A stretch of DNA of 64,000 nucleotides from Proteiniphilum acetatigenes DSM 18083 (GTDB taxonomy: Bacteria; Bacteroidota; Bacteroidia; Bacteroidales; Dysgonomonadaceae), in contig NZ_KB905704.1 of NCBI RefSeq assembly GCF_000380985.1, forward strand, positions 56,619 through 120,618, in the 5' to 3' direction. The notes below the pieces were generated by a model. That model ran no database searches and was not told the DNA's origin. It was given only the letters and a program-made list of their open reading frames with translations. Below are positions 3,960-53,386 of this stretch, piece by piece; position 1 is the stretch's first letter, and the number at the start of each line of letters is the position of its first letter. The position numbers were made by a program, and so were the translations under genes.

Positions 3960-4164
3960 TTCGTTGCCTGTTCATTCATAAAAAATACTTTGCAAAATTA
4001 AAAAATTATTCGTTCGGTTATGGAATTCCGGGCACAATTGTATCTATAAAGTGGAAAGGTGGAAGAGTGGAAAGGTATAATTGAATGAGCCCGACAAGTC
4101 GGGAAGTAGTGATAGTGAATTGAATCCTTTAATCAGTAAAATCAGTAAATCTGCAAATCAATAA

Positions 4165-6069
4165 ATGAATAAAGTTATGAAGACAACAGTTAAAAGAATC
4201 AGTTTGATGCTCCTTGCAGTGGTTATGTCGTTAGCGGTTTTCGCCCAGGAGATGGAAGTGAAGGGACGGGTATATGATGCCCAGGGGAAATTAGCGTTGT
4301 CCGGTGTCACCGTTATGGAGAAAGGGACAAAAAAGGGAATTTTTACGGATATGAATGGTGAATTCAGCATCAGGACCGGAAAAGGTAAAATACTGCAATT
4401 TCAGTATATCGGTTATAAGCCAAAAGAGGTGAAAGTGGAGAGTGAATGGATAGAAGTGTATTTGCAGCAAGAGGTGGCGCTATTGGAAGAGGTGACGGTC
4501 GTGGCTTTTGGAAAACAGAAAAAGGAAAATCTGGTTGGAGCAGCAGTTACATTAGTGCGAGGCGGGACACCCGGTATCCTCGTGCGGGGAACGGTCCGGG
4601 AAGCCGGAGCGTACCTATTCCCATATCCTGTTATTGTGCGTGACGTCAATACCGAAGAGTATGAGTCTTTTAAAGAGAATCGTTTTCTTTCGACTGTAAA
4701 GCAACCGCTTTCCACCTTTTCACTCGATGTGGATGCTGCTTCCTACGGCAATATCCGCCGCATGATCAATCAGGGACAGATGCCACCAAAAGATGCAGTA
4801 CGGGTTGAAGAGATGATCAATTATTTCAGTTATGACTATCCGCAGCCTACAGATGGCCATCCGGTAAAGATCGTTACCGAAACGACAGTCTGCCCGTGGA
4901 ATAAAGAACATCGACTGCTGCGTATCGGTGTGAAAGCAAAGGAAATTCCTTCGGAGACATTGCCGGCAAGCAATTTTATTTTTTTGATCGATGTCTCAGG
5001 ATCGATGTTCAGTGCCGATAAATTACCGCTCGTGAAGTCATCGATGAAACTGCTGGTGAATAACCTACGGCCGCAGGACCGCGTCGCGATCGTTACCTAT
5101 GCCGGAGCGGCGGGTGAAGCATTATCCCCGACAAGCGGCGTCGATAAGCAGAAGATCATCGATGCACTGGAGAATCTTCAGGCCGGTGGTTCTACCGCCG
5201 GGGGAGCAGGGATCCAACTGGCATACAAGATTGCCGAAAAGAATTTTGTGAAAGACGGGAATAACCGGGTGATCTTATGTACCGACGGTGATTTTAACGT
5301 AGGTGTTTCCAGCACGGACGGATTGGAGTCGTTGATTGAAACCAAACGGAAAAGCGGTATCTTCCTGACCGTTCTCGGGTATGGAATGGGGAATTACAAG
5401 GATAACAAACTCCAGATCCTGGCACAGAAGGGCAATGGCAATCATGCCTATATCGATAATCTGCAGGAGGCCAATAAGGTGCTTGTGAATGAATTCGGCA
5501 GTACGATGTACGCTGTGGCAAAAGACGTGAAGATACAGGTGGAATTCAACCCCGCGTTCGTCAATGCCTACCGCCTGATCGGTTACGAAAGCAGGCTGCT
5601 TGAAGATGAAGATTTCAATGACGACCTCAAAGATGCGGGTGAACTGGGACCCGGGCATACAGTGACGGCGCTGTATGAAATAGTCCCTGTCGGTGTGGAA
5701 GCTCCGGTAGGTAAGATAGATCCTTTGAAATACCAGTCTCCGGAAAAAGAGGCTCCCACCTCCAAATTCTCCAACAACAACGAGTTGTTGACTGTGAAAC
5801 TTCGTTACAAGAACCCGGACGAAGATACGAGCCGTAAATTAGAAGTCCCTGTATTGGCAAACGCGATGAATGCAGAGGTGTCGGGAGACCTGAACTTCAT
5901 TATGTCGGTCGCCATGTTTGGTCACTTGCTGCGCGATTCCGATTTCAAAGAAGACGCTTCTTATGCAAAAGTCCTCGAATTGGCCCGTAAAGGATTGAAT
6001 GATGATCCGAACGGCTACCGCCGCGAGTTTATACGGTTGGTGGAAACGGTACAGCAGTTGGAGAAATGA
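4165..6069 (+). CDS. Secreted von Willebrand factor A protein with SusC-type N-terminal domain
   Basis: 634 residues. A Sec signal peptide (1-27, cleavage after VFA) precedes a carboxypeptidase-regulatory-like domain (about 30-105), which ends in EEVTVVAFGKQKKENLVGAA, the junction seen in SusC/RagA receptors, but no barrel follows. The conserved YfbK-type N-terminal region (TFSLDVDAASYGNIRRMI) leads into a VWA domain with an intact MIDAS motif DVSGS (276-280), and a DUF3520-like C terminus extends from about 470 to the end. It probably binds ligands through metal ions at the cell surface or periplasm. Met5 (4177) is an alternative start. It is divergent from the ECF sigma gene and about 90 bp before the serpin gene, suggesting but not proving shared regulation. 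Confidence 0.9.
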   Translation: MNKVMKTTVKRISLMLLAVVMSLAVFAQEMEVKGRVYDAQGKLALSGVTVMEKGTKKGIFTDMNGEFSIRTGKGKILQFQYIGYKPKEVKVESEWIEVYLQQEVALLEEVTVVAFGKQKKENLVGAAVTLVRGGTPGILVRGTVREAGAYLFPYPVIVRDVNTEEYESFKENRFLSTVKQPLSTFSLDVDAASYGNIRRMINQGQMPPKDAVRVEEMINYFSYDYPQPTDGHPVKIVTETTVCPWNKEHRLLRIGVKAKEIPSETLPASNFIFLIDVSGSMFSADKLPLVKSSMKLLVNNLRPQDRVAIVTYAGAAGEALSPTSGVDKQKIIDALENLQAGGSTAGGAGIQLAYKIAEKNFVKDGNNRVILCTDGDFNVGVSSTDGLESLIETKRKSGIFLTVLGYGMGNYKDNKLQILAQKGNGNHAYIDNLQEANKVLVNEFGSTMYAVAKDVKIQVEFNPAFVNAYRLIGYESRLLEDEDFNDDLKDAGELGPGHTVTALYEIVPVGVEAPVGKIDPLKYQSPEKEAPTSKFSNNNELLTVKLRYKNPDEDTSRKLEVPVLANAMNAEVSGDLNFIMSVAMFGHLLRDSDFKEDASYAKVLELARKGLNDDPNGYRREFIRLVETVQQLEK

Positions 6070-27897: not shown

Positions 27898-27973
27898 AGA
27901 AGTGGAGAGATAAGTGATTAGTAATTAGTAATCAATTGGTAATTAGTAATTCGTAATTAATAATTAATATAGT

Positions 27974-28720
27974 ATGAAGCTATTAGAAGGGAAAACAGCA
28001 TTAGTGACCGGAGCTGCTCGTGGTATCGGTAAAGCAATCGCATTGAAATTTGCTTCGGAAGGTGCGAATATCGCATTTACGGACTTGACTATAGACGAGG
28101 TCGGTACAGCTACCGAGCACGAAATCGCTTCTTTGGGAGTGAAGTGTAAAGGCTATGCCTCCAATGCTGCCAATTTTGAAGAAACACACAAGGTCGTTGA
28201 GCAGGTGATGCAGGATTTTGGCCGCATAGATATCCTGATCAACAATGCCGGTATCACTAAAGACGGCTTGATGATGCGGATGAGCGAACAGCAGTGGGAT
28301 GCGGTAATCAATGTGAATCTGAAGTCGGCATTCAACTTCATTCATGCGGTGACCCCCATAATGATGCGCCAGAAATCGGGCAGCATTGTGAATATGAGTT
28401 CTGTGGTAGGTGTATCGGGGAACGCTGGTCAAGCCAATTATTCTGCGTCTAAAGCCGGAATGATCGGACTCGCGAAATCGATGGCGAAAGAGCTGGGTTC
28501 ACGCGGTATCCGTGTCAATGCGATTGCTCCTGGCTTCATCATTACCGAAATGACCGGACAGTTGTCGGAAGAAGTACGTAACGAATGGGCAAAGCAGATT
28601 CCGTTACGACGCGGAGGCACACCGGCAGATGTTGCGAATGCAGCTCTTTTCCTTGCTTCTGACCTCTCTTCGTATGTAAGCGGACAAGTAATTAATGTCT
28701 GTGGTGGTATGAATACCTGA
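27974..28720 (+). CDS. fabG: 3-oxoacyl-[acyl-carrier-protein] reductase
   Basis: 248 residues, classical short-chain dehydrogenase. Cofactor motif TGAARGIGKAIA, NNAG in ILINNAGITKDGL, catalytic Ser in NMSSVVG and the YSASKAG Tyr/Lys pair are all intact. The end region SSYVSGQVINVCGGM matches FabG rather than general SDRs. It reduces 3-oxoacyl-ACP with NADPH in fatty-acid elongation. It ends 4 bp before the RluA-family gene. The 76-bp leader is made of short AT-rich direct repeats (TAATTAGTAAT-like). Confidence 0.92.
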   Translation: MKLLEGKTALVTGAARGIGKAIALKFASEGANIAFTDLTIDEVGTATEHEIASLGVKCKGYASNAANFEETHKVVEQVMQDFGRIDILINNAGITKDGLMMRMSEQQWDAVINVNLKSAFNFIHAVTPIMMRQKSGSIVNMSSVVGVSGNAGQANYSASKAGMIGLAKSMAKELGSRGIRVNAIAPGFIITEMTGQLSEEVRNEWAKQIPLRRGGTPADVANAALFLASDLSSYVSGQVINVCGGMNT

Positions 28721-40393: not shown

Positions 40394-40465
40394 GTTGATG
40401 TGATGATTTACTGATTTGATGATTTGATGATTGGTTAGATACACCATAAAGAATAGAAAAATCAA

Positions 40466-45410: not shown

Positions 45411-46481
45411 ATGCACAGATACAAACCGGTGCGATTGATCCTTGAAAACGGGATGGTTTTTCATGGGCAATCTTTTGGAGCCGAAAAGGCAACATCGGGA
45501 GAGGTAGTTTTCAACACGGCAATGGTCGGTTATCCCGAGAGCCTGACAGACCCCTCCTACGAAGGACAAATTTTAACACTCACATATCCTATAATCGGAA
45601 ATTACGGAGTTCCCGCTCACAGCGAAACAGACGGAATTTCCGATTTTTTTGAGTCTGAGCATATCCACGCCTGCGGTTTGATCGTGCAGGATTACTCCCG
45701 GGAACATTCTCACTGGAACGCGGTGAAAAGTCTTGGTGACTGGCTCAAGGAAGAAGGGGTGCCCGGTATCTGCGGAATCGATACCCGTCTGCTTACAAAG
45801 GTGCTCCGGGAAAAAGGATCCATGCTGGGGAAGATAGTATATGAGGAAGATGGTGAAGTGGATTTCTACGATCCCGAGACTGAAAACCTTGTAGCCAAAG
45901 TCAGCTGCCGTGAAGTGATCGAATATGGGCAGGGTGAAAAGAAGGTGGTCCTGATCGATTGCGGTGCCAAACTGAATATCGTACGGGAACTGATAAAGCA
46001 GGGAGTTCGTTTGATCCGTGTTCCATGGGACTACGATTTCAACAGGATCGACTACGATGGAGTGATGATCTCCAACGGCCCGGGAAACCCCGATCATTGC
46101 GGAATCACCGTCGCCCATATCCGTGAAGCAATGAAGAAAGAGAAACCTATCTTCGGGATCTGCATGGGGAACCAACTGCTGTCGAAAGCGGCCGGAGCCA
46201 ATATCTACAAACTGAAATACGGGCACCGCAGTCATAACCAACCGGTACAAAAGGTGGGGAGTAGCCGTTGTTATATTACTTCCCAGAACCATGGCTATGC
46301 AGTGGACGAATCGCAGTTGGGTGCTGAGTGGGAACCCTGGTTCGTGAATATGAATGATGGTACCAACGAAGGAATCCGGCACAAAACGAAACCTTTCTAT
46401 TCGGTGCAGTTCCATCCTGAGGCGACCGGCGGGCCGACCGATACACGTTTCTTCTTTGAAGAGTTTGTGAAGATGATTTGA
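45411..46481 (+). CDS. carA: Carbamoyl-phosphate synthase small (glutaminase) subunit
   Basis: 356 residues. The N-terminal CPSase domain (about 1-150: LILENGMVFHGQSFGAE, VFNTAMVGYPE) is followed by a class I glutamine amidotransferase domain with nucleophile Cys in IFGICMGNQLLSKAAGA and the His/Glu pair in VQFHPEATGGP. It supplies ammonia from glutamine to CarB. It heads carA-carB-carB, with a good promoter upstream. The GNQ in place of the common GHQ after the nucleophile is a small deviation. Confidence 0.97.
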   Translation: MHRYKPVRLILENGMVFHGQSFGAEKATSGEVVFNTAMVGYPESLTDPSYEGQILTLTYPIIGNYGVPAHSETDGISDFFESEHIHACGLIVQDYSREHSHWNAVKSLGDWLKEEGVPGICGIDTRLLTKVLREKGSMLGKIVYEEDGEVDFYDPETENLVAKVSCREVIEYGQGEKKVVLIDCGAKLNIVRELIKQGVRLIRVPWDYDFNRIDYDGVMISNGPGNPDHCGITVAHIREAMKKEKPIFGICMGNQLLSKAAGANIYKLKYGHRSHNQPVQKVGSSRCYITSQNHGYAVDESQLGAEWEPWFVNMNDGTNEGIRHKTKPFYSVQFHPEATGGPTDTRFFFEEFVKMI

Positions 46482-46483
46482 AA

Positions 46484-46532
46484 GCTAAAAGCTAAAAACT
46501 AAAAGCTAAAAACTAAAAACTAAAAGTGAAAA
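46484..46532 (+). repeat. Seven 7-bp direct repeats in the carA-carB spacer
   Basis: Units RCTAAAA (GCTAAAA or ACTAAAA, the last GTGAAAA) run head to tail from 3 bp after the carA stop. A pyrimidine-rich stretch of TTCTAATTTC-like repeats (about 46580-46640) then leads to carB. No terminator hairpin is seen, so read-through is expected. Confidence 0.8.
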
Positions 46533-46643
46533 ATGAATATTGAAAAATGAATATTGGAATTAAGAACCAAGAGTCAAGATTTCTTCACTTCCTGGACTTC
46601 TCCACTTCCAACTTCTAATTTCTAATTTCCAACTTCTATAATA

Positions 46644-49600: not shown

Positions 49601-49937
49601 GCAACAACACGGTTACAACCTGTATGCTACCGGTGGGACGCAGAAATTCCTGGAGGAGAACGGTGTCAAAAGTCATTATGTGGCCTGGCCCGATGAGAAA
49701 GGAGCGGAACTGAAGGTGGATGAGATGATTGCCGAAAGGAAATTCGATCTGATCATCAATATTCCTAAAAACCTTACCGAGAGGGAGTTGACAAACGGAT
49801 ATAAGATCCGTCGCGGAGCCATAGATTACAATATCCCGCTTATTACTAATGCCCGCCTGGCAAGTGCCTTTATCAAAGCCTTCTGTAGAATATCGCAGGA
49901 TAAAATAGAAATCAAACATTGGGGAGAGTATAATTAA
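46644..49937 (+). CDS. carB: Carbamoyl-phosphate synthase large subunit, copy 1
   Basis: 1097 residues, with a 24-residue N-terminal extension compared with E. coli CarB. The carboxyphosphate half has ALILGSGALKIGEAGEFDYS and an ATP-grasp domain with VIEVNARLSRSSALASKATG. The carbamoyl-phosphate half begins at VIVLGSGAYRIGSSVEFDW and has VIECNLRASRSFPFVSKVL, more like animal CAD than E. coli (EVNPRAARTVPF). The C-terminal MGS-like regulatory domain contains LYATGGTQKFLEENG. It makes carbamoyl phosphate for pyrimidine and arginine synthesis. Internal ATGs at 46647 and 46665 are alternative starts. Confidence 0.97.
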   Translation: MMNNNLFMQDITPSSGEGRLKIKKALILGSGALKIGEAGEFDYSGSQALKALREEGVETILINPNIATVQTSEGSADKIYFLPVTPYFVEKVIEKERPDGILLAFGGQTALNCGVQLYTAGTLEKYNVAVLGTPVQSIMDTEDRDLFVKKLDQINVKTIQSYAVSTTKDALQAASRLGYPIIVRAAYALGGLGSGFCNDEEELKSLASKAFNYSDQLLVEKSLKGWKEVEYEVVRDRYDNCITVCNMENFDPLGIHTGESIVVAPSQTLTNSEYHKLRELSIRIVRHIGIVGECNVQYAFDPASEDYRVIEVNARLSRSSALASKATGYPLAFVAAKLALGYGLFDLKNSVTRSTSAFFEPALDYIVVKIPRWDLGKFSGVSKEIGSSMKSVGEIMAIGRTFEEAIQKGLRMTGLGMHGFVENKELKIDDIDKALREPTDQRIFVISKAFRKGYTIDQIHDLTKIDRWFLQKLYNIVKTAETLENYTDESIDLGKENNPGFDEILKTAKQQGFSDFQVARAIRKEKMKEDDFIQIREYRKKLGILPFVKQIDTLAAEYPAQTNYLYLTYNGSENDVHYLGDHRSVIVLGSGAYRIGSSVEFDWCSVNALNTVRKEGFRSVMINYNPETVSTDYDMCDRLYFDELSYERVMDIIELENPHGVILSVGGQIPNNLAVRLDQSGVNILGTGAKSIDNAEDRHKFSSMLDRLGIDQPRWKELTTLSDIHQFAEEVGFPLLVRPSYVLSGAAMNVCSNEKELEHFLTLATEVSAKYPVVVSEFVENAKEIEMDAVACNGELIVYAISEHVEFAGVHSGDATIQFPPQKIYVQTVRRIKQITREIARALQITGPFNIQFLAKDNAIKVIECNLRASRSFPFVSKVLKINFIELATKVMLDIPVEKPEKSAFELDYVGIKAPQFSFTRLQKADPVLGVDMASTGEVGAIGTHFDDALLTSMLAVGYRIPQKNIMVSSGGSRSKVDLLDACRLLQQHGYNLYATGGTQKFLEENGVKSHYVAWPDEKGAELKVDEMIAERKFDLIINIPKNLTERELTNGYKIRRGAIDYNIPLITNARLASAFIKAFCRISQDKIEIKHWGEYN

Positions 49938-50010
49938 TTGACAATTGACAATTGATAATTGACAATGAATGTGTAAATTCGCTTTTAGTAAACTCAAATG
50001 AACCACTCAT

Positions 50011-50150
50011 TACATCAATCTCCATCAATCTCCATCAATCTAATTCAATCTGATTCAATCTGGTTCAATCTGATTCAATCTGGTTCAATCTGGTTCAATC
50101 TGATTCAATCTGGTTCAATCTGGTTCAATCTGATTCAATCTGATTCAATC
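50011..50150 (+). repeat. Fourteen tandem 10-bp repeats between the two carB genes
   Basis: Units of TGRTTCAATC run in perfect 10-bp register: three diverged units (TACATCAATC, TCCATCAATC twice), one TAATTCAATC, then ten alternating TGATTCAATC and TGGTTCAATC. The array ends 23 bp before the second carB start. Ten base pairs is about one helical turn, so all units face the same side of the DNA. Confidence 0.95.
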
Positions 50151-50173
50151 AAAAAAATCATATAATTCAATTC

Positions 50174-53100
50174 ATGGACAAATCAATTAAAAAAGTTATT
50201 TTATTGGGTTCCGGCGCCCTGAAGATCGGACAAGCGGGAGAATTTGATTATTCCGGTTCGCAGGCTTTGAAAGCAATGCGTGAAGAGGGAATAGAAACAG
50301 TGTTGATCAATCCGAATATTGCTACCATCCAGACGTCGGAAGGTGTGGCTGACAGGGTTTACTTCCTGCCAATTACTCCCTATTTCGTAGAGAAGGTAAT
50401 CCGGAAAGAGCAACCGGATGGTATCCTCCTGGCTTTTGGCGGGCAGACGGCGCTGAACTGTGGCGCCGAGCTATACCAAAGCGGAATACTCGATAAATAT
50501 GGCGTACGTGTATTGGGAACGTCGGTAGAGGCGATCATGATCACGGAGGACAGGGATTTGTTTGTGAAGAAATTGAATGAGATCGATGCCAAAACACCTG
50601 CATCGCGGGCAGTGGAAAGTCTGGAAGACGCGCTGGCGACAGCCCGGGAGATGGGATTTCCTATTATGGTGCGTTCGGCATATGCATTAGGCGGACAAGG
50701 TTCGGGTATCTGCACGAATCAGGAGGAGTTTGTAGAGCTGTGCAAGAGTGCCCTCTCTTTCTCTAACCAGATACTGGTAGAGGAAAGCCTGAAAGGGTGG
50801 AAAGAGATTGAGTTTGAAGTGATCCGCGACAAGAACGACCACTGCTTCACGGTCGTACCGATGGAAAACTTCGACCCGCTGGGTATCCATACCGGTGAAA
50901 GCATTGTAGTGGCGCCCATCATCACACTCAGCAAAGAGCAGATTGCCATGCTCGAAGATATCGCACAGCGTGTGGTACGCCATATCGGCATCGTGGGAGA
51001 ATGCAATATCCAGTATGCTTTCAATGCGGAGACCAACGATTACCGTATTATCGAGATCAATGCCCGTCTGAGCCGCTCATCTGCCCTCGCTTCCAAAGCA
51101 TCGGGATATCCCCTGGCTTTTGTGGCGGCAAAACTGGCGTTGGGGTATACGCTCGACCAGATAGGGGAGATGGGAACGCCCAACTCCGCCTATGTAGCTC
51201 CAAAGGTAGACTATATGATCGTGAAGATCCCTCGTTGGGACCTCAATAAATTCTACGGCGTCAGCCACGAGATCGGCTCCTCCATGAAATCGGTCGGTGA
51301 GATCATGTCCATCGGACAATCGTTCGAAGAGATCATCCAAAAGGGATTACGTATGATCGGGCAGGGGATGCACGGCTTTGTTGGAAATCGGGAAATGACT
51401 TTCGACAATGTGGAAGAGGCACTTTCAAAACCGACCGATATGCGTATTTTCGCTATTGCCGATGCTTTTGAAAAAGGATATTCGGTCGAACAGATTGAAG
51501 AATTGACTAAAATCGATCTATGGTTCCTGGAGAGACTGGAAAATATTTATAATTATTCAAAAGTCCTTGAGACCTATAATAAGATTGAAGATTTGCCGGA
51601 AGATGTACTCAAAAAAGCAAAACGCCTTGGTTTCTCCGATTTCCAGATCGCAAGGTTTGTAGAAGATCCGCAGGGTACGTTAGAAGAAGATCTGATCAGG
51701 GTACGCAACCACAGGAAAGCGCTGCAGGTAATGCCGTTAGTTCGTCGTATCAATACGGTTGCCTCCGAAAATCCTGATAAGACCAATTATTTATATTTTA
51801 CGTATGATTCAGATAAAGCTTTTACACCCGGTAAAAGTGAAAAAGAGTCCGTCATTGTGCTGGGGTCCGGTGCTTACCGCATCGGCTCGTCGGTGGAGTT
51901 CGACTGGTGCTCGGTCAACGCCGTGCAGACTGCCCGCGAACTGGGCTATGAATCGGTAATGATCAACTATAATCCCGAGACGGTATCGACCGATTACGAT
52001 ATGTGTGACCGGCTCTATTTCGATGAATTGTCGTTCGAGCGTGTACTTGACGTGATCGATATAGAAAATCCAAAAGGGGTGATCGTTTCGGTAGGGGGAC
52101 AGATCCCCAACAACCTCGCCATGAAGTTGTACCGGCAGAATGTATCCATCCTGGGTACCTCTCCTTTGTCGATCGACCGGGCTGAGAACCGCCATAAGTT
52201 CTCTGCCATGCTCGACGAGTTGGGAATCGACCAACCCCGCTGGAAAGAGATGACCAGCTTTGAAGAGATCGATGCTTTTATCGACGAAGTGGGCTTCCCC
52301 GTATTGATCCGTCCTTCTTATGTGCTTTCGGGGGCTGCCATGAACGTTTGTTACGATAAGGAACAGATGCATGCTTTCCTGAAAATGGCGGCCAATGTAT
52401 CGAAAGAGTATCCCGTAGTAGTCTCTTCCTTCCTACAGAATGCCAAGGAGATTGAATTCGATGCGGTAGCCCGTGAGGGTGAAGTGATGGAATATGCCAT
52501 TTCGGAACATGTAGAGTTTGCCGGTGTCCATTCGGGCGATGCCACTCTGGTATTCCCCGCGCAGAAGATCTATTTCGAGACCATGCGCCGAGTGAAGAAA
52601 ATATCCAAGCGAATCGCGAAGGAATTGAATATCAGCGGGCCGTTCAACATCCAGTATCTTGCCAAGAATAACGAGATCAAGGTGATTGAGTGTAACCTGC
52701 GGGCATCCCGCTCTTTCCCCTTTGTCTCCAAAGTGTTGAAACACAATTTTATTGATACCGCTACCCGCATCATGCTGGGTGCGCCTTTCAGCAAACCCGA
52801 CAGCTCGGTGTTCGACCTGGAATATATCGGAGTAAAAGCGTCGCAGTTCTCTTTCTCCCGTTTGCAGAATACTGATCCGGTCCTGGGAGTGGATATGTCC
52901 TCCACCGGTGAGGTGGGATGTATCGGGGAAGATTTCTCGGATGCGATCCTCAAGTCGATGCTCTCGGTAGGATACAAAATACCCAAAAAAGGTATCCTGA
53001 TCTCTTCGGGAGAGATGAAGTCGAAAGTCGACCTGCTGGAAGCATGCAAGCTGCTGGGTGAGAAAGGCTATGATCTCTATGCCAGCCACGGTACGCAAAA

Positions 53101-53386
53101 ATTTCTGGAAGAAAACGGAATTAAAGCGACCGATGTGAACTGGCCGGACGAGAATGGGGAAAACAATATCAGGCAGATGATCGTTGACAAGCGGTTCGAC
53201 CTGATCATCAATATTCCCAAAAACGTCACGAAACGGGAGCTTACCAACGGATATATCATTCGTCGTGGTGCGGTCGATTTTAATATCCCGCTCATCACCA
53301 ATGCCCGACTTGCCAGCGCTTTTATCACGGCCTTCTGCAATTTGGATCAGGAAGATCTCGAGATCAAGAGTTGGAACGAGTATTAA
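50174..53386 (+). CDS. carB: Carbamoyl-phosphate synthase large subunit, copy 2
   Basis: 1070 residues, the standard length. It is colinear with copy 1 throughout and shares long identical blocks, including LSRSSALASKA, GAYRIGSSVEFDWCSVNA and ECNLRASRSFPFVSKVLK, so both catalytic halves look intact. Differences concentrate in the linker at about 480-560 and in the C-terminal MGS-like regulatory domain, where copy 2 has LYASHGTQKF (copy 1 LYATGGTQKF) and different downstream residues. The two may therefore respond to different effectors, such as UMP and ornithine/arginine (inference). It is followed by a terminator. Confidence 0.97.
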   Translation: MDKSIKKVILLGSGALKIGQAGEFDYSGSQALKAMREEGIETVLINPNIATIQTSEGVADRVYFLPITPYFVEKVIRKEQPDGILLAFGGQTALNCGAELYQSGILDKYGVRVLGTSVEAIMITEDRDLFVKKLNEIDAKTPASRAVESLEDALATAREMGFPIMVRSAYALGGQGSGICTNQEEFVELCKSALSFSNQILVEESLKGWKEIEFEVIRDKNDHCFTVVPMENFDPLGIHTGESIVVAPIITLSKEQIAMLEDIAQRVVRHIGIVGECNIQYAFNAETNDYRIIEINARLSRSSALASKASGYPLAFVAAKLALGYTLDQIGEMGTPNSAYVAPKVDYMIVKIPRWDLNKFYGVSHEIGSSMKSVGEIMSIGQSFEEIIQKGLRMIGQGMHGFVGNREMTFDNVEEALSKPTDMRIFAIADAFEKGYSVEQIEELTKIDLWFLERLENIYNYSKVLETYNKIEDLPEDVLKKAKRLGFSDFQIARFVEDPQGTLEEDLIRVRNHRKALQVMPLVRRINTVASENPDKTNYLYFTYDSDKAFTPGKSEKESVIVLGSGAYRIGSSVEFDWCSVNAVQTARELGYESVMINYNPETVSTDYDMCDRLYFDELSFERVLDVIDIENPKGVIVSVGGQIPNNLAMKLYRQNVSILGTSPLSIDRAENRHKFSAMLDELGIDQPRWKEMTSFEEIDAFIDEVGFPVLIRPSYVLSGAAMNVCYDKEQMHAFLKMAANVSKEYPVVVSSFLQNAKEIEFDAVAREGEVMEYAISEHVEFAGVHSGDATLVFPAQKIYFETMRRVKKISKRIAKELNISGPFNIQYLAKNNEIKVIECNLRASRSFPFVSKVLKHNFIDTATRIMLGAPFSKPDSSVFDLEYIGVKASQFSFSRLQNTDPVLGVDMSSTGEVGCIGEDFSDAILKSMLSVGYKIPKKGILISSGEMKSKVDLLEACKLLGEKGYDLYASHGTQKFLEENGIKATDVNWPDENGENNIRQMIVDKRFDLIINIPKNVTKRELTNGYIIRRGAVDFNIPLITNARLASAFITAFCNLDQEDLEIKSWNEY

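What the first reader, a model, noticed from the sequence alone, without database searches (positions are those of the whole stretch)
50011..50150. Fourteen-unit, helically phased decamer array in the leader of the second carB
The spacer between two carB paralogues is almost entirely a 10-bp tandem repeat, TGRTTCAATC, with units alternating A/G at one position and three diverged units at its 5' end. It ends 23 bp before the start codon. Period 10 puts each unit on the same DNA face, which suits cooperative protein binding; the array could equally change length by slippage and tune expression of copy 2, or act in the transcript. Seen: the array and its position. Inferred: the regulatory role.
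Basis: partly seen in the sequence, partly recalled or inferred. Interest (0 to 1): 0.72.

Follow-up and report, generated by a model that had tools for sequence, protein, structure and literature searches.

The report
Dispersed phased heptamer-core repeat array
The fourteen ten-letter repeats before the second carB gene are the longest copy found in this genome of a repeat family scattered between unrelated genes in related bacteria, all built on one seven-letter core that is likely a row of binding sites for a still unknown protein.

Summary
The array is real: 14 units of 10 bp (50012-50151) in the 236-bp spacer between two carB paralogues. It is not carB-specific. It belongs to an intergenic repeat family: a 7-nt core, TCAATCT, plus a free 3-nt (sometimes 4-nt) spacer. 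The closest congener (G003) has 20 such arrays at the loci read, beside unrelated genes. Exact three-core arrays occur in 13 of 101 genomes of the family, 4 of 15 genera; the reversed pattern gives 0. Plain slippage does not explain that spacers vary 6-12 times more than the core (octamer repeats in the same DNA 0.8-2.1, neutral simulation about 1), or that core steps are 10 or 11 bp and rarely 9. The TCAATCT strand points into the nearer gene in 62 of 69 arrays, but octamer repeats share this polarity. Arrays turn over fast: sister species have 14 and 9 units at carB2 between near-identical flanks, and 9 of 10 orthologous spacers of three G003 arrays hold no phased pair. A carB2-specific switch is not supported. 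I favour tandem binding sites for an unknown DNA-binding protein; that step is inferred.

The parts
50012..50151 (+). 14-unit decamer array; each unit is a 3-nt spacer plus the core TCAATCT (last core ends in A)
50012..50041 (+). three diverged 5' units (ACATCAATCT, CCATCAATCT, CCATCAATCT); core intact, spacer different
50152..50173 (+). A/T-rich 22-bp leader between array and carB2 ATG, identical in sister species G003
49938..50011 (+). 5' part of the spacer; it begins with an AATTGAC heptamer repeat (TRF 49936-49966) and is nearly identical in G003 (76 of 77 bases up to the array)
50174..53386 (+). second carB (carbamoyl-phosphate synthase large subunit), 1070 aa
   Evidence: TIGR01369
46644..49937 (+). 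first carB, 1097 aa, 66% identical to the second over the aligned part
   Evidence: TIGR01369
45411..46481 (+). carA (small subunit), 356 aa, upstream on the same strand; a carA-carB-carB operon is inferred, not shown
   Evidence: TIGR01368

Best explanation
The array is the longest copy found in its genome of a dispersed intergenic repeat family, a 7-base core TCAATCT plus a free 3-base (sometimes 4-base) spacer, and the core is likely kept because an unidentified sequence-specific DNA-binding protein recognises it, one site per helical turn. Shown here: the family, its core/spacer split, its 10/11-bp phasing, its recurrence in several genera, its position at gene edges, and its gain and length change between close relatives. 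Inferred: the binding protein. In this model units are duplicated or lost in blocks by slippage or unequal recombination; units whose core mutates are weeded out because they no longer bind, while spacers drift. At carB2 the array would be one such row of sites and not a dedicated carB switch; any effect on carB2 transcript or translation would be a side effect of occupancy or of leader length.
For: Same core in 13 of 101 family genomes and 4 of 15 genera, reversed control 0 in all 101. With flanking cores fixed and the middle unit left free, neighbouring spacers differ at 0.353 per site and the middle core departs at 0.015 (86 triples, 31 loci; ratio 11.8, bootstrap 6.0-30.3; 6.2 with the two dropped rows put back). 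Neutral simulation gives 0.95-1.30 in seven settings; octamer repeats in the fetched loci give 0.8-2.1. Core steps: 230 of 289 are 10 bp, 24 are 11, 4 are 9 (11 against 9, p = 0.0002). Head-to-head pairs are always AGATTGA-centre-TCAATCT (8 of 8). Known tandem binders use a like layout: 7 conserved plus 4 less conserved bases (PMC4415409, passages).
Against: No protein was identified. Arrays come and go fast: of 10 orthologous spacers of three G003 arrays, 9 have no phased pair and 1 has a two-core remnant. 88 of 101 family genomes have no exact three-core array. Neighbouring genes share no theme (20 proteins). The polarity into the nearer gene, 62 of 69, is shared by octamer repeats (13 of 14 and 11 of 12), so it is no evidence for a core-specific factor. 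The octamer control is small.
Confidence: 0.4

Rival explanations
1. A self-propagating intergenic satellite without cellular function. The 7-base core is what the duplication process itself needs (an anchor for slippage, template switching or a nicking enzyme), so units with an intact core are the ones that multiply; the cell merely tolerates arrays in spacers.
For: Fast gain and length change; A/G variants in a 30-bp super-unit, as left by block duplication; other repeat families (7-mers, 8-mers) fill the same spacers in relatives; unrelated neighbours.
Against: Uniform mutation with slippage does not give a protected core with a free spacer, and octamer repeats in the same loci lack it. The same exact core in separate genera needs a sequence-specific step in any case.
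Confidence: 0.35
2. Spacer filler shaped by translation and transcription signals: a G-poor, unstructured repeat is tolerated before start codons in the TCAATCT sense and after stop codons in the AGATTGA sense, where its TGA can end the gene.
For: Polarity 28 of 33 at starts and 34 of 36 at stops; octamers share it; three of three one-sided arrays fold weakly or not at all as RNA.
Against: Does not explain an exact 7-base core or the 10/11-bp steps. Spacer ends without arrays show no consistent TCAAT/ATTGA asymmetry in the window's genus.
Confidence: 0.1
3. A dedicated regulator of carB copy 2 whose unit number tunes expression.
For: Unit number differs between sister species, 14 and 9. Small core remnants lie upstream of carB2 in close relatives: two cores 10 bp apart in G010, cores 11 and 10 bp apart in G018, weaker in G013.
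Against: The same family sits beside many unrelated genes. 22 of 27 genomes of the genus have no TCAATCT in the last 150 bp before carB2; many have other repeats there.
Confidence: 0.07

Closest known systems
TAACTGA heptamer direct repeats of marine Beggiatoaceae, Cyanobacteria and some Bacteroidetes (MacGregor 2015, PMC4679880; abstract, passages and sections 7, 10, 23 read)
   Same: Dispersed intergenic arrays of one 7-base word, mostly toward start codons (147 of 170 sets) and some toward stop codons (12), lineage-specific, whole-unit length differences between close strains, no functional theme; the author also considers a repeat-binding protein.
   Different: There the heptamers abut (period 7) and sets hold 2-6 copies in the main genome; here a free 3-4 nt spacer gives a 10/11-bp period, sets reach 14 units, and head-to-head pairs occur.
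PHO box and other OmpR/PhoB-type tandem operators (PMC4415409, passages; PMC4832192, start of the abstract in a search listing only)
   Same: Direct repeats of about 7 conserved bases plus 4 less conserved bases, head to tail on one helix face.
   Different: Here the period is mostly 10, up to 14 units, beside unrelated genes, at stops as well as starts, with fast turnover; no regulator is known. A likeness of layout, not membership.
Borg tandem repeats (PMC9879509; abstract and outline only)
   Same: Recently formed, fast-evolving tandem repeats, in part intergenic.
   Different: Borg repeats are said to arise independently; here one core recurs at many loci and in several genera.

Membership tests
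Intergenic short tandem repeats (5-11 nt unit) | short unit repeated head to tail between genes | tested here: met
   (7 of 77 arrays fall inside an ORF call)
Intergenic short tandem repeats (5-11 nt unit) | unit number varies between close relatives | tested here: met
   14 against 9 units at carB2
Intergenic short tandem repeats (5-11 nt unit) | variation spread evenly over the unit, as plain slippage predicts | tested here: not met
   ratio 6.2-11.8 against about 1 in simulation and 0.8-2.1 for octamers
TAACTGA-type heptamer repeats | contiguous TAACTGA units, period 7 | tested here: not met
   core is TCAATCT, steps 10/11
OmpR/PhoB-type tandem operator | 7-bp conserved motif with a short free spacer, 10-11 bp period | tested here: met
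OmpR/PhoB-type tandem operator | bound by a winged-helix response regulator | not testable with these tools
   no protein identified
OmpR/PhoB-type tandem operator | a shared regulon at promoters | tested here: not met
   no theme in 20 neighbouring proteins; arrays at stop codons as often as at starts
Structured RNA leader or riboswitch | Rfam match or fold better than shuffles | tested here: not met
   no Rfam match at gathering score in the window; carB2 spacer z 0.01, 107 of 200 shuffles fold as well

The most novel reading that the evidence does not exclude
An undescribed tandem-binding system: one protein reads TCAATCT once per helical turn in rows laid at gene edges and pointing into the genes, and the rows multiply across a genome in bursts when that protein (or an enzyme that copies its own site) is present, so that intergenic DNA is rebuilt around a single 7-base word in separate genera.
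Probability: 0.3. Interest if true: 0.78.

Novelty: new variant of a known kind. Interest (0 to 1): 0.55.

Why it matters
Bacterial intergenic short tandem repeats are usually read as slippage by-products. Here one family can be told apart from its neighbours by a protected core with a free spacer, helical phasing and recurrence in several genera, so the old question of whether such repeats are recognised by a cell factor becomes directly testable with one 7-base bait. It also warns against reading a striking array upstream of one gene as that gene's private regulator.

Tried and rejected
carB-specific regulator: set aside because of the dispersed family and the carB2 leaders of 27 genomes of the genus, own included.

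RNA element: no Rfam hit at gathering score; the carB2 spacer folds like its shuffles. Seven of the eight head-to-head pairs were folded and all seven fold well (z -3.7 to -9.4; for L128 one of 200 shuffles folds as well). Of three one-sided arrays two have zero folding energy and one has z -2.8. Judged by eye, the 3-nt spacers of a pair match each other fully only in L102.

Plain slippage: rejected as a full account by simulation and by the octamer control. That control is small, 7-20 triples per motif, and rows whose middle core was more than two bases off were left out of the ratios (octamers 1 of 8, 7 of 26, 4 of 21 and 4 of 24; decamer 1 of 174). The decamer ratio (13.6) is biased upward, since many of those loci were fetched for exact cores; one search is the unbiased one.

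Polarity as a special property of this core: I first took it so; the octamer recount showed the same polarity, so I withdrew it as core-specific evidence. The octamer motifs overlap, so 13 of 14 and 11 of 12 are not independent. No heptamer motif reached p < 0.05. The two decamer counts differ (62 of 69, 50 of 62) because the second uses strict 10-bp runs and a different, partly redundant locus set. In one search, 8 of 77 arrays were set aside (7 inside an ORF call, 1 without a flank), clusters with fewer than two steps of 10, 11, 20 or 21 were not counted, and L130 and L132 were left out as orthologues. An earlier count said 7 were set aside; 8 is right. ORFs were called by a simple ATG rule, so single start sites may be wrong.

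Absence of G003 arrays in relatives: I first read all as absent; one search showed a two-core remnant in G018 at one locus, so the count is 9 of 10.

Literature: searches listed no paper on TCAATCT decamer arrays (the first 12 of 4,558 were shown). The one TCAATCT hit that I opened is a PCR primer; the others were not opened.

Full report
Observation. The spacer between two carB genes (both TIGR01369; 66% identical) is 236 bp long and holds a 14-unit 10-bp array at 50012-50151. In core/spacer register every unit is three bases followed by TCAATC and, in the first 13, a T. The A/G variants do not strictly alternate; TRF scores a 30-bp super-unit higher, which is what duplication of unit blocks would leave. 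carA lies upstream on the same strand, so the spacer is probably inside an operon (inferred).

It is not private to carB. In the window's own genome (G000, 4.78 Mb in 37 contigs) shorter arrays of the same core lie elsewhere, the longest with 4 cores, two of them in a mur gene cluster (mur genes recognised by eye from the translations). In the closest congener, G003 (carB2 98% identical), I find 20 arrays of three or more cores at the loci fetched. A search for core pairs at most 24 bases apart gives 103 hits in G003 against 2 for the reversed pattern, and 27 against 3 in G000. Genes beside the arrays include chorismate synthase, ATP synthase delta subunit, GroEL, a phenylalanyl-tRNA synthetase beta chain, exonuclease VII, an ABC transporter and FecCD, with no common theme (20 chosen neighbours scanned, all with a Pfam match).

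Distribution. Exact TCAATCT-N3-TCAATCT-N3-TCAATCT occurs in 13 of 101 genomes of the family and 4 of 15 genera; the reversed control is 0 in all 101. Counts are overlapping matches: G003 59, G077 37, G000 13, G078 11, the other nine 1-7. Spacers differ widely between loci and genera while the core is the same; in that search the exact core is a condition of the search.

Core against spacer. To avoid that condition I searched for exact cores 20 bp apart with everything between left free (88 cases in 7 genomes). In 86 cases (two dropped by me as chance) neighbouring spacers differ at 0.353 of sites and the free middle core departs at 0.015; half the first over the second is 11.8 (bootstrap over 31 loci 6.0-30.3). 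With the two rows put back it is 6.2. Simulated arrays with slippage and uniform mutation give 0.95-1.30 in seven settings. Octamer repeats in the loci that I held give 0.8-2.1 (7-20 triples per motif). So the protected core marks this family and is not seen in the octamers of the same DNA.

Phasing. In the clusters read (three or more cores, steps up to 22), 230 of 289 core-to-core steps are 10 bp, 24 are 11, 13 are 20, 4 are 21, 4 are 9 and 4 are 12; the other 10 are 4, 6, 8 or 16 (some loci are orthologues of others). The preference for 11 over 9 (24 against 4, p = 0.0002) fits sites kept on one face of the helix.

Position. Of 77 arrays, 7 fall inside an ORF call and 1 lacks a flank. In 62 of the other 69 the TCAATCT strand points into the nearer gene (28 of 33 at starts, 34 of 36 at stops); without orthologous copies it is 56 of 63. 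At several stops the array overlaps the gene's end by 7 bases, so that the TGA of AGATTGA is the stop codon. A stricter recount gives 50 of 62. Octamer repeats obey the same rule (13 of 14 and 11 of 12, overlapping motifs), so polarity is probably a general limit on what spacer edges tolerate. In g7, g9 and one G003 locus two arrays face each other around a 9-32 bp centre, 8 of 8 in the order AGATTGA-centre-TCAATCT; the seven folded form interrupted hairpins (z -3.7 to -9.4).

Turnover. At carB2 the sister species has 9 units where the window has 14; the 77-bp and 23-bp flanks match at 76 and 23 bases. Of 27 genomes of the genus whose carB2 leader I read (own included), 5 have TCAATCT within 150 bp of the start and 22 have none; G038 has one further upstream. 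Others hold different heptamers or octamers, or a very short spacer. Three G003 arrays were traced in five relatives: of 10 orthologous spacers found, 9 have no phased pair and one (G018) has a two-core remnant.

What it most likely is. The protected core, free spacer and 10/11-bp phasing are what tandem sites for one sequence-specific DNA-binding protein would look like. OmpR/PhoB-type regulators bind units of 7 conserved plus 4 less conserved bases (PMC4415409 passages; PMC4832192, start of abstract in the listing). I commit to a binding-site array (confidence 0.4), with a self-propagating satellite close behind (0.35). The protein, its function and any effect on carB2 are inferred or unknown. 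Membership in a PhoB-like system is not claimed.

Against my reading: no protein, no regulon, fast loss, patchy presence, and a polarity that other repeats share. The nearest described repeats are the TAACTGA heptamers (PMC4679880), whose author also considers a repeat-binding protein as the mobile part.

Lineage.

Noticed in passing
L027 (G002), L018 (G013), L020 (G018), upstream of carB2: Short carA fragments (residues 1-104, 57-86 and 1-26) stand just upstream of carB2, and no carB1 lies between: relics of a lost carA-carB1 at this place. Whether carA exists elsewhere in these genomes was not searched.
   Followed up: partly
   Followed up: no
L077 1704-1726 (G000 C11): The same core TCAATCT with a 1-nt spacer, period 8, three cores: the core is not tied to period 10 without exception.
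   Followed up: no
window 4131-4173, 27910-27974, 40396-40432, 46481-46556: Other spacers of the window hold 7- and 8-bp repeats of unrelated sequence; congeners have yet other repeats in the carB1-carB2 spacer.
   Followed up: partly
L134 2181-2546; similar-sized ORFs in L105, L128, L132: A 121-aa ORF with a 23S rRNA-intervening-sequence protein domain (PF05635) lies between two arrays in L134; ORFs of 120-121 aa stand beside arrays in L105, L128 and L132. Homology between them was not tested.
   Followed up: no
L015, L016: The only exact matches to the carB2-type three-unit pattern in the public genome collection were one Chlorobiota and one Methanimicrococcus contig (near relatives of the window may be left out there).
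   Followed up: no
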